A stretch of DNA of 46,185 bases from a virus: IMG/VR virus record IMGVR_UViG_3300029327_000047, positions 1-46,185 of that record; one strand, given 5' to 3'. Position numbers and translations under genes: made by a program. The notes below the pieces were generated by a model. It was not told the origin of the DNA. It worked only from the letters and a program-made list of their open reading frames with translations, and made no database searches. Of the stretch, positions 14,273 through 21,888 are shown in pieces (positions within the stretch are counted from its first letter, which is position 1; each line of letters starts with the position of its first letter).

Positions 14273-15474
14273 TTTACTACAACGACAATAACCCGGAGTC
14301 GTGCGCTTGGTTAAAAGAGCTAATAACAGACCAACTGATTTCCGAGGGGCATATAGACCTTCGATCCATCCTCGACGTACAGCCGGAAGATGTTGCCGGG
14401 TACAGGCAAGCACATTTTTTCGCCGGCATAGGAGGCTGGATTGAAGCTTTACGCCTTGCCGACTGGCCTCCATATATTCCGGTTTGGACTGGATCATGCC
14501 CTTGTCAACCCTTCAGTTGTGCCGGGAAAGGCAGGGGAGAAGCCGACGAGCGGCACTTGTGGCCTGAATTTCGGCGGCTCATTGACGAGTGCAGACCTCC
14601 AATTGTCTTTGGAGAGCAGGTTGCGTCAAAGGCTGGAAGGTTATGGCTCTCCGGAGTACGCGCTGACTTGGAAGCAATGGGATATGCAGTCGGGGCCGCC
14701 GATTTGTGCGCTGCGGGCGTCTCAGCGCCGCACATCAGGCAAAGGCTGTACTGGGGAGCGGTCGGGATGGAATACCCCGATTGTGAACGATGCGGAGAAA
14801 AGGGGAAAACCTGTAGTCGGAGCGGGGCTTGCGGGAGCAGGGAACTTGACAGGCTGGCCGAGCCCAAACACTCCGTCAGGCGGCAGGTCGGTATCGATAG
14901 AAAAAATGGACGCTACGGGGCGGACGCTGGACGGCAAGAAGCACACGGCAAGCTTGGAACACGCGGCCAAGTTTGTCGGCTGGAACTCTTCCCGCGCAAC
15001 GGACGGGAGCAACGGCGGGCCGAATCAGGCAGGCGGGTCACTGAGTGCGGATGCAAATCTGGCGGGTTGGACTACCCCGCAAGCGATGGAGCCAGAAACC
15101 GATTTCTACAGGCCGAGCAGGACGGCGACGGGGAGAACTACCGACTACCTAGGCCGTCAAGTACAGGGTCTGGCGGGGTGGGCGACATGCGCCAGCCGGG
15201 ATTGGAGATCCGACCAGGGGCAGAAAACGGATTCGGAGCAATACGGTACCAAGGGCAGACCATTATCCCGGCAAATCCTTGGTCTGACTCCCGACCAATC
15301 CTCTGCCGGGACGGAAAAACAAGAAGGATACCGGTTGAATCCCTTCTTTTCCCTGTGGCTCATGGGGTACCCGGTAGAGTGGGGCTACTCCGGGGTGCGG
15401 GCAATGCAATCGTGCCGGAACTCGCGGCGGAATTCATCAAGGCGTTCTTAGAGGCAATAAAAGGGGCTGTATGA
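14269..15474 (+). CDS. dcm: C5-cytosine DNA methyltransferase, 401 aa, GTG start
   Basis: Motif I HFFAGIGGWIEAL (49-61), motif IV GSCPCQPFS with catalytic Cys79, motif VI as FGEQVASK (EQV for ENV), motif VIII HIRQRLYW, and C-terminal motif X RGAGNAIVPELAAEF. The region between VIII and X is the target-recognition segment. The GTG at 14269 overlaps the HTH stop codon (GTGA) and gives the family's N-terminus IYYNDNNPESCAWL; longer starts have no support. Probably protects phage DNA from restriction. A second open frame of 336 codons lies wholly inside it. Confidence 0.93.
   Translation: MIYYNDNNPESCAWLKELITDQLISEGHIDLRSILDVQPEDVAGYRQAHFFAGIGGWIEALRLADWPPYIPVWTGSCPCQPFSCAGKGRGEADERHLWPEFRRLIDECRPPIVFGEQVASKAGRLWLSGVRADLEAMGYAVGAADLCAAGVSAPHIRQRLYWGAVGMEYPDCERCGEKGKTCSRSGACGSRELDRLAEPKHSVRRQVGIDRKNGRYGADAGRQEAHGKLGTRGQVCRLELFPRNGREQRRAESGRRVTECGCKSGGLDYPASDGARNRFLQAEQDGDGENYRLPRPSSTGSGGVGDMRQPGLEIRPGAENGFGAIRYQGQTIIPANPWSDSRPILCRDGKTRRIPVESLLFPVAHGVPGRVGLLRGAGNAIVPELAAEFIKAFLEAIKGAV
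14441..15451 (+). CDS. Overlapping second-frame protein nested in the C5 methyltransferase gene, 336 aa
   Basis: An open frame wholly inside the methyltransferase gene, shifted one base. AGGAGG (14430-14435) lies 5 nt before a TTG start at 14441. The protein has five copies of a GWxxP-like motif (residues 109, 138, 180, 209, 246: GWNTP, GWPSP, GWNSS, GWTTP, GWATC), a block SLESRLRQRL...YALTWKQWDM, and the ending LNPFFSLWLMGYPVEWG. From memory these are hallmarks of a phage protein family often seen beside or within C5 methyltransferase genes, with no known function. Alternatively its likeness arises only because the methyltransferase frame is conserved. Confidence 0.5.
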   Translation: MKLYALPTGLHIFRFGLDHALVNPSVVPGKAGEKPTSGTCGLNFGGSLTSADLQLSLESRLRQRLEGYGSPEYALTWKQWDMQSGPPICALRASQRRTSGKGCTGERSGWNTPIVNDAEKRGKPVVGAGLAGAGNLTGWPSPNTPSGGRSVSIEKMDATGRTLDGKKHTASLEHAAKFVGWNSSRATDGSNGGPNQAGGSLSADANLAGWTTPQAMEPETDFYRPSRTATGRTTDYLGRQVQGLAGWATCASRDWRSDQGQKTDSEQYGTKGRPLSRQILGLTPDQSSAGTEKQEGYRLNPFFSLWLMGYPVEWGYSGVRAMQSCRNSRRNSSRRS

Positions 15475-15914
15475 ACGAGGCAATCGAAGCGGCAAAACGA
15501 GGTTGGAAGATCTTCCCCATTAAGACAATGCAGAAAAAACCCCCGATTTTTAAAGACTGGGAAAACATCGCCTCAAGCGACCCGGAACAGATCCGGAAAT
15601 GGGGTGAGAAGTATAAAAACTGTAATTGGGGCGTGGCTTGCGGGCCCTCAAATCTGGTGGTAATCGACGTAGATATAAAAGACGGCAAGCCCGGCCGCGA
15701 AACCCTGGCCGCCCTGGAAGCCAAATACGGCCCACTCCCTCAATGCCGAATGGCCATAACCCCTTCAGGCGGGTATCACTACTACTTTACCGGCCTTTGC
15801 TCAAGCGGAACCGATAAGCTCGGCCCCGGAATCGATATCAAGTCGAGTGGCGGGTATGTCGTGCTCCCCGGCAGTAAAACCGAAAACGGCGCCTATAACT
15901 GGCTGGAGTTTTGA
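15471..15914 (+). CDS. PrimPol-type primase domain protein, 147 aa
   Basis: Bifunctional primase-polymerase (PF09250-like) domain: RGWKIFPIK at the start, the metal-binding VVIDVDIKDG, the His strand MAITPSGGYHYYF and GIDIKSSGGYVVLPGS. It would make primers for replication. The ATG overlaps the methyltransferase stop (ATGA) and follows AAGGGG. It ends right after the fold (NWLEF) and the helicase gene begins 1 nt later in another frame; in many plasmids and phages the two are one chain. Confidence 0.9.
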   Translation: MNEAIEAAKRGWKIFPIKTMQKKPPIFKDWENIASSDPEQIRKWGEKYKNCNWGVACGPSNLVVIDVDIKDGKPGRETLAALEAKYGPLPQCRMAITPSGGYHYYFTGLCSSGTDKLGPGIDIKSSGGYVVLPGSKTENGAYNWLEF

Positions 15915-15915
15915 T

Positions 15916-17364
15916 ATGGAGGCCGCCCTTCCCCTCTGGGTCTACGAGTACGCTGAAGCACCAAGGCAAAAGACACCGCGCGCCGATGTCCCAGCTTGCG
16001 AGCTGGACACCCCCTCGGCCATTATTGCCGCAATAAAATATGCCAAAATTGCCGAGCCCTCCATCGAGGGCCAAGGTGGAGACGATAACGCCTACCGGGT
16101 AGCCTGCAAGATGCGAGATCTCGGGGTGTCCGAAGATACCTGCACGGAGATCCTGGCCGATGAGTGGAATGATCGGTGCCTGCCGCCCTGGAACTTCGAA
16201 GAGCTACAGGCCAAAGTCGGACATGCATACCAATACGCCCGAGGACAGGCCGGGGCGATTTCGCCTGAAGCCATAACTGAGATGTTTACCGTGATCGAGG
16301 AAGAAAAGCCGGCTGATAGGCCGGTACCTTTCTTTGATTACGAGCTGGACGGCGAGCCCCCGGCCCGGAAATGGATTGTGCAGGATTGGTTGCCCCAGGG
16401 CGAGGTCTCGAGCCTCTACGGCGATGGGGGCCAAGGTAAGACACTTCTCGCCGAGCAACTCGGTTTCTGTGTTTCCCGCGGCCTTCCTTTTCTCGGGCTC
16501 CTAACAGCCAAGATGCCTGTTTTTGCCGCTCTGGCGGAGGATGATCGAGACGAAGTGCATCGCCGGCTATCAGCTATCAGAAAGGCGTACAGCTCCCCAC
16601 CAAAAGAAGAATCATATTTCCGGATCTTCGCCTTCCCTTCGGAAAACTACATCCTGGCAAAGGCGAGCGGAGAGGGCCGACTTGTCAAAGGCCCGTTTTA
16701 TGATCTGCTGGTTTCCTTTCTCGAAGAAATGCCGGAAGGCCCTAAATTCCTGATCCTCGATACCCTGGCTGATATGTTCGATGGTAACGAAAACATTCGC
16801 AACCAGGCGAACCGGTTCATTAAAAACGTGCTTCGCGGCCTGTGCGCCAAGTATGAAACGACAATCTTGATGTTGGCGCACCCTTCCCGCTCCGGCATGG
16901 CCGCCGAGGACAACCTTAGCGGATCCACGGCGTGGAATAATGCGGTCAGAAACAGGATCACCCTGACCAGCCATAAAGTTTTGTCTGACGTCCGCATACT
17001 CACTCGGGTCAAAAGCAACTACGCCCGATCCGGTGACACCATAACCCTTTGCTGGCAGGCCGGCGTTTTCGTAGTGATAAATGAGGCCGAGGCACTGAGG
17101 GAAGCCGCTGACACGCACGAGGAAGTGATCCTTAAAGCTTTGGAAGAGGCGGCAAAAGAAGAGATGCCCTTCGGGGATTCGCGAAATCACGGGAACAATA
17201 TCTTTAACAGTTTGAGCCGGTTTTCGACCAATGGAAAGCCCATAGACAAGGCGCTCTTGAAATCCGTTTTGGACTGTCTGATTGCATCCGGCAAAGTGGT
17301 GAGGGTCAAAGGTAAATACCGGGGTAACGGCCTCTACCCCGCTGATTTCGAAAGAGATGATTAA
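15916..17364 (+). CDS. RepA/DnaB-like replicative helicase (AAA_25 type), 482 aa
   Basis: An N-terminal helical segment (about 25-110, IIAAIKYAKIAEPS...) precedes a RecA-type core: Walker A LYGDGGQGKTLLAEQLG, Walker B FLILDTLADMF and the sensor TTILMLAHPSRSG. This is the hexameric RepA/AAA_25 helicase family, usually joined to PrimPol primases. A winged-helix-like tail (IDKALLKSVLDCLIASGKVVRV) ends it. GGAG, inside the end of the primase gene, lies 7 nt before the ATG. The iteron array starts directly after its stop codon. Confidence 0.9.
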   Translation: MEAALPLWVYEYAEAPRQKTPRADVPACELDTPSAIIAAIKYAKIAEPSIEGQGGDDNAYRVACKMRDLGVSEDTCTEILADEWNDRCLPPWNFEELQAKVGHAYQYARGQAGAISPEAITEMFTVIEEEKPADRPVPFFDYELDGEPPARKWIVQDWLPQGEVSSLYGDGGQGKTLLAEQLGFCVSRGLPFLGLLTAKMPVFAALAEDDRDEVHRRLSAIRKAYSSPPKEESYFRIFAFPSENYILAKASGEGRLVKGPFYDLLVSFLEEMPEGPKFLILDTLADMFDGNENIRNQANRFIKNVLRGLCAKYETTILMLAHPSRSGMAAEDNLSGSTAWNNAVRNRITLTSHKVLSDVRILTRVKSNYARSGDTITLCWQAGVFVVINEAEALREAADTHEEVILKALEEAAKEEMPFGDSRNHGNNIFNSLSRFSTNGKPIDKALLKSVLDCLIASGKVVRVKGKYRGNGLYPADFERDD

Positions 17365-17378
17365 TGGAAAAGGGCATC

Positions 17379-17744
17379 TGCGAGATTCCTGCAAGATTCG
17401 CGAGATTAACCCTACAATCCTGCAAGCAAAGGAAAAATTGGAGCACATTCAATGGGTTGGGATTCTTGCGAGATTCTTGCGAGATTCTTGCGAGATTTGA
17501 ATGCGAGATTTCTGCGAGATTATGCGAGATTGCAAAAATGGAGGTTGGAATAGGCAGATATATCAACAGTTTAGAAGCTGCGAGATTCTTGCGAGATTAT
17601 GCGAGATTGGCTATGCGAGATTTGAATGCGAGATTTCTGCGAGATTATGCGAGATTGCAAAAATGATAGTTGGAATAGGCAGAAATATCAGCAGTTTAGA
17701 AACTGCGAGATTCTTGCGAGATTTGCGAGGTGGGGTGCGAGATA
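17379..17744 (+). repeat. Iteron-like array of TGCGAGATT, candidate replication origin
   Basis: About 20 copies of TGCGAGATT or close variants on one strand, starting at 17379, 17390 (A variant), 17399 (C variant), 17467, 17478, 17489, 17502, 17513, 17523, 17579, 17590, 17600, 17614, 17627, 17638, 17648, 17704, 17715, 17724 (variant) and 17736. Inside clusters the step is mostly 10-11 bp, one helical turn, so bound proteins would line up on one face. It lies between the primase-helicase genes and a resolvase gene. The repeats leave long frames open (17364-17666), which I regard as a by-product. Confidence 0.85.
17489..17723 (+). repeat. 110-bp direct duplication within the iteron array
   Basis: 17489-17598 and 17614-17723 are copies of each other at a fixed 125-bp offset, with only about six differences. 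Each copy has six iterons and a non-iteron middle containing TTGGAATAGGCAGA and CAGTTTAGAA. The array seems to have grown by duplication of a larger unit. Confidence 0.85.
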
Positions 17745-17781
17745 TATACCCCTTAAGGGGTATAAATATCTCGCAAACCCC
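17732..17781. repeat. Long imperfect hairpin closing the iteron array
   Basis: The left arm GGGGTGCGAGATATATACCCC and a right arm GGGGTATA(AA)TATCTCGCA(AA)CCCC pair around TTAA with two 2-nt bulges, giving about 21 base pairs. The outer part pairs the last forward iteron with its only inverted copy (17766-17775). The AT-rich centre could be a melting or nicking site, or a cruciform; as RNA it would also be a strong hairpin before the resolvase gene. Confidence 0.75.
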
Positions 17782-17811
17782 CCACTAAGCAGGCGAGAGG
17801 ATAGGCAAAGA

Positions 17812-18702
17812 ATGATTCTCGGATTAGACCTTGCACAAAAAACCGGCTGGTGCCTTCGGGCAAATGGGAAAGTGGTTGCCTCGGGCATGCAGGACTTCAC
17901 TAAAAAACGGGGGGAGTCAAACGGCCTGCTGTTTCTGAAGTTTCGCAAGTGGTTTGAAAGTATGCTGCTTAATTCTAACGCCCTAAACAACGATTCAAAG
18001 CAGAGAGAGAAACTAGCCTGGGCAGCGGGGCTATTTGACGGAGAGGGATCTACAGGGACTTATCAACAAAGTGTGAAAGAGAAGCTAAAGAGCGGCGAAA
18101 CGAAAAAATACGATTACCAATCCGTGCAAATGGGGATAGCTCAAACGGATACCCGAGTACTTAAGCGATTCCAGGAAGCCATCGGAGTGGGTGTGATTTG
18201 CGGTCCGTACTCAGAAGGAAGAGACGGAAATCCAAAGCGGAAGGGGTGCTACGCTTGGAAGGTAAGCGGGGTGGAACGTGTAAGAAAAACCTTGGAATTG
18301 ATATGGCCATGGCTCGGAGAAGTTAAAAGAGAGCAGGCTGAAAAGGCTTTAGCAACTAAAATCGCTGCAGCAGTCAATCCCCATAAACCCGTTCCCCGCT
18401 TTGGAATAGTAGTGTATGAGCAGCCTCACCATAGAGGCGGGCATGCGACTGAGCTCCTGCTCGGAATGGTTTCAGTGGTGCAAGAGGTATGCGCCTTATG
18501 GAATGTAGAAATCGCTACAGTGCATACAGCCACTCTCAAAAAGCATGCATGCGGCTCGGGACGAACTGAAAAGGGGCAGATGATAAAGGCAGCGGCGCGT
18601 ATTCTCGGCCGGCCTCCGGTTGATGATAACGAGGCTGATGCCGTGCATGTCGCCGCATGGGCGGAGCAGGAATTCGTATCGACACGAACGGATTTTATTT
18701 AA
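17812..18702 (+). CDS. RuvC-like Holliday-junction resolvase with inserted LAGLIDADG domain, 296 aa
   Basis: The ends form a phage RuvC-type RNase H fold: MILGLDLAQKTGW (D6), IVVYEQPHHRGG (E203), TVHTATLKKHACG and DDNEADAVHVAAW (D271/D272, D276), so the acidic catalytic set is intact. Residues about 56-185 (DNA about 17977-18366) are foreign to that fold and carry LAWAAGLFDGEGST, a LAGLIDADG homing-endonuclease motif, then QTDTRVLKRFQEAIG and a C-terminal helix pair. No intein splice residues (N-terminal Cys/Ser, C-terminal His-Asn) are seen, so the domain probably remains in the protein. It would resolve replication or recombination junctions. Confidence 0.85.
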   Translation: MILGLDLAQKTGWCLRANGKVVASGMQDFTKKRGESNGLLFLKFRKWFESMLLNSNALNNDSKQREKLAWAAGLFDGEGSTGTYQQSVKEKLKSGETKKYDYQSVQMGIAQTDTRVLKRFQEAIGVGVICGPYSEGRDGNPKRKGCYAWKVSGVERVRKTLELIWPWLGEVKREQAEKALATKIAAAVNPHKPVPRFGIVVYEQPHHRGGHATELLLGMVSVVQEVCALWNVEIATVHTATLKKHACGSGRTEKGQMIKAAARILGRPPVDDNEADAVHVAAWAEQEFVSTRTDFI

Positions 18703-19745: not shown

Positions 19746-20237
19746 GTGCCTCAATACGAAACTGCGTTTATCGCGGCTGTTGGCCAGGTCCTAAGTTTTG
19801 AGGGCGGGCTATCTAACGACCCTGATGATCCTGGCGGGCTCACGAAATACGGCATTTCTCAAAGATCCTATCCAACCCTTGATATCCGAAACCTGACTCA
19901 GGAACAGGCTATCGAGATTTATTACAGGGATTGGTGGCGGAAACACAACCTGGGGATAATCCCTGATCCCAAAATAGCGGCTAAATGTTTTAGTCTCGCC
20001 GTAAACATGGGGCCCAAACCCGCTTTTAAGCTTCTGCAATCAGCGATAAACGCCACGCTCCCAAAAAGCATGGCCATCGCAGTTGACGGCGTAATTGGCC
20101 CTAAAACTCTCTCCCGTATCAGGTTTTCGACGCCCGAACTACTTCTAGCGCTCTATAAACTCGCGGCCGTGGAGCATTATGCGGCGCTCAATAAACCGAA
20201 ATACCTAAAAGGGTGGATCAGGAGAGCGATAGCATGA
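19746..20237 (+). CDS. GH108 N-acetylmuramidase endolysin, 163 aa, GTG start
   Basis: Cleaves host peptidoglycan at lysis. The catalytic FEGGLSNDPDDPGG (Glu in EGG) and LTKYGIS near the N-terminus, and the DWWRKHN segment, define the glycosyl hydrolase 108 family; the C-terminal half with VDGVIGPKTLSRI fits the family's peptidoglycan-binding end. There is no signal peptide, so export depends on a holin. The GTG at 19746 has GGGGG upstream. Confidence 0.92.
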   Translation: MPQYETAFIAAVGQVLSFEGGLSNDPDDPGGLTKYGISQRSYPTLDIRNLTQEQAIEIYYRDWWRKHNLGIIPDPKIAAKCFSLAVNMGPKPAFKLLQSAINATLPKSMAIAVDGVIGPKTLSRIRFSTPELLLALYKLAAVEHYAALNKPKYLKGWIRRAIA

Positions 20238-21288: not shown

Positions 21289-21443
21289 GCAGCATTCTGC
21301 AAGAGATCAGAGAGCCGCTTGCCATAGCCGGGTTGATCCTTATTGCCGTGGTAGCGATGGCCTGTCTCGGCAAAGATGGAATCCCAATCGTTACAGGGTG
21401 CGCGGGTGGACTCGGCGGGATCATCGTTGGAAAGAAGATGTAG
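21285..21443 (+). CDS. Small two-span membrane protein, holin candidate, 52 aa
   Basis: Two hydrophobic segments (LAIAGLILIAVVAMACLG and PIVTGCAGGLGGIIVG) with a short turn and a basic end (GKKM) match a class II holin outline. The ATG at 21285 overlaps the phospholipase-like stop (ATGA). Confidence 0.6.
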   Translation: MSSILQEIREPLAIAGLILIAVVAMACLGKDGIPIVTGCAGGLGGIIVGKKM

Positions 21444-21522
21444 TGTGCGCGGCGCGATTCGAAAGGATCTAGCAAGCGCCCAAGAAGATCATCTTATAGC
21501 GGTCATCGATAAAAGGAATGCG

Positions 21523-21888
21523 ATGCCTTCTGCCCCGCCCCATGCATGTGGGCATCCTGGATGCAGTGCGCGCGTACCTCGTGGGCAGAGTAGATGTGAT
21601 GCCCATGCCAAGCAGTTACGCAGACAGTCTGATGCAGGCAGGTTGAGTAGCACAAAGCGTGGGTATGACGGTAGATGGCGAAAGGAAAGCGCCGAGTATC
21701 TAAGACAGCATCCAGACTGTGTTGATTGTGGCAAGGCAGCAGTACAGGTGGATCACATACGCCCTCATAAGGGCGACATGATTCTGTTTTGGGACAAATC
21801 TAATTGGGCGGGCAGGTGCGGCTCGTGCCACTCGATTAAGACAAATAAATATGATGGGGGCTTTGGCAATAAGGAGAGGGGGGCCTAA
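21523..21888 (+). CDS. HNH endonuclease, 121 aa
   Basis: An N-terminal CGHPGC zinc motif, RGYDGRWRK, then CVDCGK and VDHIRPHKGD, and the terminal NWAGRCGSCHSIKT give the HNH motif with its structural Cys pairs. This class commonly sits immediately before terminase in cos-type phages and is needed there for DNA packaging. The ATG at 21523 has AAGGA upstream; a GTG at 21445 could extend it by 26 residues. Confidence 0.9.
   Translation: MPSAPPHACGHPGCSARVPRGQSRCDAHAKQLRRQSDAGRLSSTKRGYDGRWRKESAEYLRQHPDCVDCGKAAVQVDHIRPHKGDMILFWDKSNWAGRCGSCHSIKTNKYDGGFGNKERGA

What the first reader, a model, noticed from the sequence alone, without database searches (positions are those of the whole stretch)
17977..18366. 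LAGLIDADG domain inserted inside a RuvC-type resolvase without intein splice sites
All acidic residues of the RuvC-like core are kept, yet about 130 residues with LAWAAGLFDGEGST are inserted in frame between the first helix and the strand carrying E203. There is no Cys/Ser at the front junction nor His-Asn at the back, so protein splicing is unlikely. It would be a two-nuclease protein: a homing domain that has colonised a resolvase in a tolerated loop, next to the likely origin.
Basis: partly seen in the sequence, partly recalled or inferred. Interest (0 to 1): 0.75.

Follow-up and report, generated by a model that had tools for sequence, protein, structure and literature searches.

The report
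Homing nuclease inserted inside phage resolvase
A phage gene for a DNA-junction-cutting enzyme (a RuvC-like resolvase) has a complete second DNA-cutting domain, of a selfish 'homing' family, built into one of its loops with no sign that it is ever spliced out, which is rare and gives a testable case of one nuclease colonising another.

Summary
The 296-aa protein at window 17812-18699 (+) is a phage RuvC-like resolvase with a 141-aa LAGLIDADG domain (about 17971-18393) in frame between its first helix and the strand carrying E203. The two RuvC pieces together give a full RuvC fold (Z 19.9, 1.9 A over 146 residues). The insert, modelled alone (pLDDT 93), is an I-CreI/I-CvuI-like single-motif LAGLIDADG endonuclease. 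All RuvC acids and all near-invariant LAGLIDADG residues are kept. Among 293 other distinct full-length RuvC-like proteins fetched, none has the insert. The two nearest (L342, L090) are syntenic and insert-free, and a tree nests the window among them, so the insert was gained. There is no Hint/intein module and no group I intron signal, with positive controls for both. The insert's family (PHROG 5046) is almost always free-standing. One close precedent exists: an unspliced LAGLIDADG in mycobacteriophage DNA methylases (Taj_79, PMC9957025, PMC11855218), which I find belongs to the same PHROG. That it still homes, and that both nucleases are active, is inferred: only one insert-bearing allele is known.

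The parts
17812..18702 (+). whole gene: RuvC-like resolvase with in-frame LAGLIDADG insert (296 aa)
   Evidence: start ATG aligned with the starts of insert-free relatives
17812..17970 (+). RuvC-like N part (residues 1-53; beta1-3 and first helix, catalytic D6 at 17827-17829)
17971..18393 (+). inserted LAGLIDADG homing-endonuclease domain (residues 54-194)
18013..18054 (+). LAGLIDADG motif LAWAAGLFDGEGST; catalytic acid E78 at 18043-18045
18394..18699 (+). RuvC-like C part (residues 195-296; E203 at 18418-18420, D271/D272 at 18622-18627, D276 at 18637-18639)
15471..15914 (+). primase-polymerase domain gene, synteny marker shared with L342 and L090
15916..17364 (+). AAA helicase/primase-helicase gene, synteny marker
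19746..20237 (+). endolysin gene, synteny marker shared with L090

Best explanation
The gene encodes one unspliced two-domain protein. A normally free-standing phage LAGLIDADG homing-endonuclease gene (PHROG 5046) was captured in frame in the length-variable loop between the first helix and the E203 strand of a phage RuvC-like resolvase. Shown: the insertion is derived; both folds and both sets of catalytic residues are complete; no splicing element is detectable. Inferred: translation gives the whole chain; the RuvC core still cuts branched DNA as a dimer; the single-motif LAGLIDADG domain acts as a homodimer, which RuvC dimerisation would help; and it can cut insert-free copies of the gene or another site in co-infecting phages, so that repair copies the insert over. 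The tolerated loop removes the need for an intron or intein.
For: Insert-free alignment and junctions. 293 other distinct complete RuvC-like proteins span 140-169 residues against 288 here. Syntenic insert-free relatives L342 and L090, window nested with them at 99/88 and 97/94 support. RuvC flanks modelled at pLDDT about 95 and matching RuvC at Z 19.9, 1.9 A. Insert modelled at pLDDT 93 and matching I-CvuI/I-CreI, E 1e-7; profile matches I-MsoI, I-CvuI and I-HjeMI. 30 of 33 near-invariant RuvC columns and 10 of 10 LAGLIDADG columns kept. No intron: LittleE's group I intron is found by the same search (E 3e-5) but nothing in the window insert. No Hint module in the insert, whereas a related domain in a real terminase intein gives one weakly (Hint E 0.0034, below its cut-off). 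Family almost always free-standing (79 of 80 loci). Same-family unspliced insertion in Taj_79 (PMC9957025).
Against: Only one insert-bearing sequence is known, so mobility cannot be tested. The site is a variable loop, not a conserved target as homing sites usually are. A search for a pseudo-palindromic target at the joined flanks gave nothing beyond what 100 trials allow (best 8 of 11 pairs, 0.002 per random joint). The RuvC part has a somewhat longer branch than its nearest relatives (0.74 against 0.53 and 0.48), which could mean relaxed constraint. No expression data.
Confidence: 0.6

Rival explanations
1. Domesticated fusion: the LAGLIDADG domain no longer homes but serves the resolvase, as a DNA-binding or site-specific cutting domain directing it to a phage sequence such as the upstream repeats.
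For: Both catalytic sets intact; insertion in a variable loop rather than a conserved target; repeat array just upstream of the gene; the precedent in methylases looks vertically inherited rather than mobile (PMC9957025).
Against: No second phage with the same architecture among 293 other RuvC-like proteins, so no sign of maintenance by selection.
Confidence: 0.22
2. Dead resolvase: the insertion inactivated the phage RuvC function, which is dispensable because the host has its own RuvC; the open frame is a young remnant.
For: Host genome carries ruvC beside ruvA; only one allele known; somewhat longer branch.
Against: RuvC acids and 30 of 33 near-invariant columns kept, no stop or frameshift; flanks model as an intact RuvC fold.
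Confidence: 0.12
3. Spliced element: an aberrant intein, or an intron whose whole length is open reading frame.
For: In-frame placement inside a conserved enzyme; relatives of this endonuclease family do live in a group I intron (LittleE) and in a true intein (L500).
Against: About 14 residues before the LAGLIDADG motif, no room for a Hint domain; no Hint match; no RF00028 match while the LittleE control is found; nearly all of the 423 nt codes for the endonuclease, leaving no room for a ribozyme core.
Confidence: 0.04
4. Assembly or binning artefact joining two phage genes.
For: Single metagenome-type assembly (119 contigs), no reads available.
Against: Both RuvC halves are contiguous, in frame and close to the same two relatives, with the insert between them; two independent breakpoints in frame are unlikely.
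Confidence: 0.02

Closest known systems
Lone LAGLIDADG domain in actinophage DNA methylases (Taj_79, Akhila_67; PMC9957025, PMC11855218)
   Same: In-frame insertion of about 139 aa, no intein or intron detectable, domain predicted to fold on its own; same PHROG 5046 family.
   Different: Host is a methylase, not a nuclease; found in nine related phages, here in one; the Taj insert scores far better against Pfam LAGLIDADG_1.
Free-standing phage LAGLIDADG endonucleases of PHROG 5046
   Same: Same fold, motif and length of domain.
   Different: They have their own start and stop codons and lie between genes; here the domain has no start codon of its own nearer than M51 in the RuvC part.
Phage RuvC-like Holliday junction resolvases (PHROG 159, for example AcaML1 gp18)
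   Same: Whole RuvC core and catalytic acids.
   Different: None of 293 other distinct complete relatives fetched carries the insert.
IscB/Cas9: HNH nuclease inserted in a RuvC-like domain (PMC6452270)
   Same: Second nuclease of a homing-endonuclease type lodged inside a split RuvC fold.
   Different: Different nuclease family, insertion between RuvC motifs I and II rather than II and III (own knowledge for the latter), no guide RNA expected; an analogy, not kinship.
Rps3/LAGLIDADG fusion proteins of fungal mitochondria (I-OnuI, I-LtrI structures)
   Same: Homing endonuclease fused to a host protein without removal.
   Different: Fused to a ribosomal protein in organelles; two-motif monomeric enzymes.

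Membership tests
RuvC-like resolvase (PHROG 159) | four acidic active-site residues in order on the RNase H fold | tested here: met
   D6, E203, D271/D272, D276 kept
RuvC-like resolvase (PHROG 159) | RuvC fold | tested here: met
   Z 19.9, 1.9 A, 146 residues to D. radiodurans RuvC
RuvC-like resolvase (PHROG 159) | dimeric cleavage of four-way junctions | not testable with these tools
   needs protein
LAGLIDADG homing endonuclease | LAGLIDADG helix with catalytic acid | tested here: met
   AGLFDGEG with E78
LAGLIDADG homing endonuclease | alpha-beta-beta-alpha-beta-beta-alpha fold | tested here: met
   pLDDT 93 model, I-CvuI/I-CreI E 1e-7
LAGLIDADG homing endonuclease | site-specific cleavage of the insert-free allele | not testable with these tools
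   single allele, no assay
Intein | Hint splicing domain around the endonuclease | tested here: not met
   no Pfam Hint match in insert or whole protein; a related domain in a real intein gives a weak, below-cut-off match (L500)
Intein | Cys/Ser/Thr at the start, Asn then Cys/Ser/Thr at the end | tested here: not met
   no such pair at the junctions mapped; S55 and N189-P190 lie near but without block A or G sequence
Group I intron | conserved ribozyme core | tested here: not met
   no RF00028 at E up to 10; LittleE control found at E 3e-5
Unspliced LAGLIDADG insertion as in Taj_79 | in-frame endonuclease of the same family without splicing module | tested here: met
Unspliced LAGLIDADG insertion as in Taj_79 | evidence of mobility between alleles | tested here: inconclusive
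   only one insert-bearing sequence found

The most novel reading that the evidence does not exclude
A homing endonuclease and a recombination nuclease have become one enzyme: the LAGLIDADG dimer makes the cut and the RuvC dimer resolves the junctions formed when the cut is repaired from the insert-bearing copy, so the element carries two steps of its own homing. It would also be a young natural parallel to the capture of an HNH nuclease inside RuvC that led to IscB and Cas9.
Probability: 0.12. Interest if true: 0.85.

Novelty: new variant of a known kind. Interest (0 to 1): 0.52.

Why it matters
Homing endonucleases are thought to need an intron, an intein or an intergenic site to avoid harming their host gene. 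This is a case in which a variable loop of an enzyme appears to be enough, and the host enzyme itself works on the recombination intermediates that homing makes. Together with the methylase case of the same endonuclease family it suggests a repeatable route by which selfish nucleases become built-in domains, comparable to the step that made IscB and Cas9.

Tried and rejected
Intein and group I intron were tested with positive controls and rejected. A hidden endonuclease in another frame, as in the ShiLan element, was looked for: the other five frames of the insert hold 5-10 stops and no open stretch over 53 codons. Independent translation of the domain: no start codon between M51 and the motif. 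Target-site duplication at the junctions: only 5-nt matches, chance level. Pseudo-palindromic homing site: not significant after counting 100 trials. Direct searches with the chimera or its insert in viral contigs found no close relative; plasmids gave only RuvC-like fragments. MAFFT of mixed RuvC and LAGLIDADG rows misaligned and was not used for folding. In the whole-chain model the insert is poorly predicted because its alignment held only RuvC relatives; it was therefore modelled alone.

Full report
What is there. The window is a tailed-phage genome or prophage (terminase, portal, major head, tape measure and tail genes) held as almost a whole contig of a 4.6-Mb genome assembly. The gene at 17812-18702 encodes 296 residues. 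PHROG profiles match its back part as a RuvC-like Holliday junction resolvase (PHROG 159, E 2.7e-16) and its middle as an endonuclease family (PHROG 5046, E 4.8e-15). PHROG 5046 is labelled HNH, but a profile of its members matches solved LAGLIDADG enzymes (I-HjeMI, I-MsoI, I-CvuI; E down to 7e-13), and 50 of 50 aligned members fall in that PHROG.

Junctions. Aligned with 26 insert-free relatives, the RuvC part is continuous up to residue 53 and from residue 195; the insert is about residues 54-194 (17971-18393), where relatives have a loop of a few residues of variable length and sequence. The DNA alignment with L342 and L090 agrees. The loop lies between the first helix and the strand carrying E203. 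In RuvC the two catalytic strands run parallel with the acids at their far ends, so this loop should face away from the active site (inference from the known fold).

Insertion is derived. Relatives were collected from phage, viral-contig and genome collections. A profile of insert-free proteins run over all open frames fetched found 295 distinct complete proteins; 293 span 140-169 residues and only the window protein and its own copy span 288, as two pieces. The two nearest relatives, L342 and L090, are about 60% identical and syntenic: primase-polymerase, AAA helicase, resolvase, and in L090 the same endolysin downstream. A tree of the flanks places the window with L342 (99/88) and then L090 (97/94), inside an insert-free group. 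They are homologues rather than strict alleles. No other genome among 98 relatives of the host carries the chimera. The host has a normal ruvC next to ruvA.

Structure. AlphaFold2 on the whole chain gives pLDDT about 95 for both RuvC parts; compared with solved structures, residues 1-288 align with D. radiodurans RuvC at Z 19.9, 1.9 A over 146 residues, and with E. coli RuvC at Z 18.8. The insert is poor in that model, because its alignment held no relatives of the insert. Modelled alone with 49 relatives it reaches pLDDT 92.9 with the alpha-beta-beta-alpha-beta-beta-alpha pattern, and its best matches are the single-motif homodimers I-CvuI and I-CreI (E 1.3e-7 and about 2e-6, TM 0.6).

Integrity. 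Of 33 RuvC columns at least 85% conserved, 30 are kept, among them D6, E203, D271, D272 and D276; of 10 such LAGLIDADG columns all are kept, including the catalytic acid E78. The insert is open for 141 codons (1 in 20,000 shuffles). Its third-position G+C is 0.45 against 0.58 and 0.51 in the two flanks, which fits a foreign origin but is weak on 141 codons.

Splicing. Inteins: a relative of this very domain sits in a real terminase intein (L500), with CTPAETPI at the front, about 115 residues before the motif, and SSN-S at the end; there Pfam Hint is detected weakly and below its cut-off (E 0.0034), in the window not at all. The window insert has about 14 residues before the motif. Introns: the relative in LittleE lies inside an annotated group I intron, which Rfam finds at E 3e-5 when searched permissively though below its gathering score; the window insert gives no such match at E up to 10. 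Almost all of the insert codes for the endonuclease, so no ribozyme core fits.

How unusual. In a sample of 80 viral loci with the AGLF(D/E)GEG motif, 79 are free-standing small genes and one is in the intein; the best 80 relatives of the insert are likewise not fused to a resolvase. The closest precedent is in the literature: actinophage DNA methylases such as Taj_79 contain a lone LAGLIDADG domain of about 139 residues for which neither an intein nor an intron could be found, apparently inherited vertically (PMC9957025, PMC11855218). I fetched Taj_79 and found that its insert matches the same PHROG 5046 (E 1.6e-8, residues 62-189), directly after the methylase DPPY region. A recent text states that free-standing homing genes are generally limited to intergenic sites to spare host genes (PMC13405050), so both cases are exceptions.

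Mechanism. Shown: a derived, in-frame, apparently unspliced insertion of an intact endonuclease domain in a loop of an apparently intact resolvase. Inferred: both activities, and homing. Against easy homing: the site is not conserved DNA, no pseudo-palindrome stands out, and only one allele is known. Rivals kept: a domesticated targeting domain, and a resolvase killed by the insertion.

Analogy. IscB and Cas9 carry an HNH nuclease inserted in a RuvC-like domain (PMC6452270). The window protein is a different nuclease in a different gap of the same fold, in a resolvase without guide RNA; it is offered as a parallel, not as kinship.

Limits. The metagenome collection could not be scanned; collection scans return only the best 80 loci, so other insert-bearing alleles may exist. 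No reads, RNA or protein data were available.

Noticed in passing
window 15471-17364: The primase-polymerase and AAA helicase parts are two abutting genes (TGA at 15912-15914, ATG at 15916), whereas in the syntenic relatives L342 (621-2648) and L090 (278-2425) they form one open frame.
   Followed up: partly
window 17378-17782: Array of GCGAGATT repeats (eight 27-nt copies, two 110-nt copies 95% alike) followed by a nearly perfect inverted repeat around CCCCTTAAGGGG, directly upstream of the resolvase gene; possible replication origin or regulatory site.
   Followed up: partly
window 21376-21888: HNH endonuclease gene (PF01844) just upstream of the terminase large subunit gene.
   Followed up: no
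L500 2-1993: A PHROG 5046-like LAGLIDADG domain inside an apparently intact intein of a phage terminase large subunit.
   Followed up: partly
L173 1447-1980: In mycobacteriophage LittleE the homing endonuclease gene lies in the capsid group I intron on the strand opposite to the capsid gene.
   Followed up: no
L088 744-2025: Host genome contig C21 carries two overlapping, adjacent RuvC-like open frames of an unusual type.
   Followed up: no
PHROG 5046: The family is labelled HNH endonuclease in PHROGs and in some phage records although its members are LAGLIDADG enzymes.
   Followed up: yes
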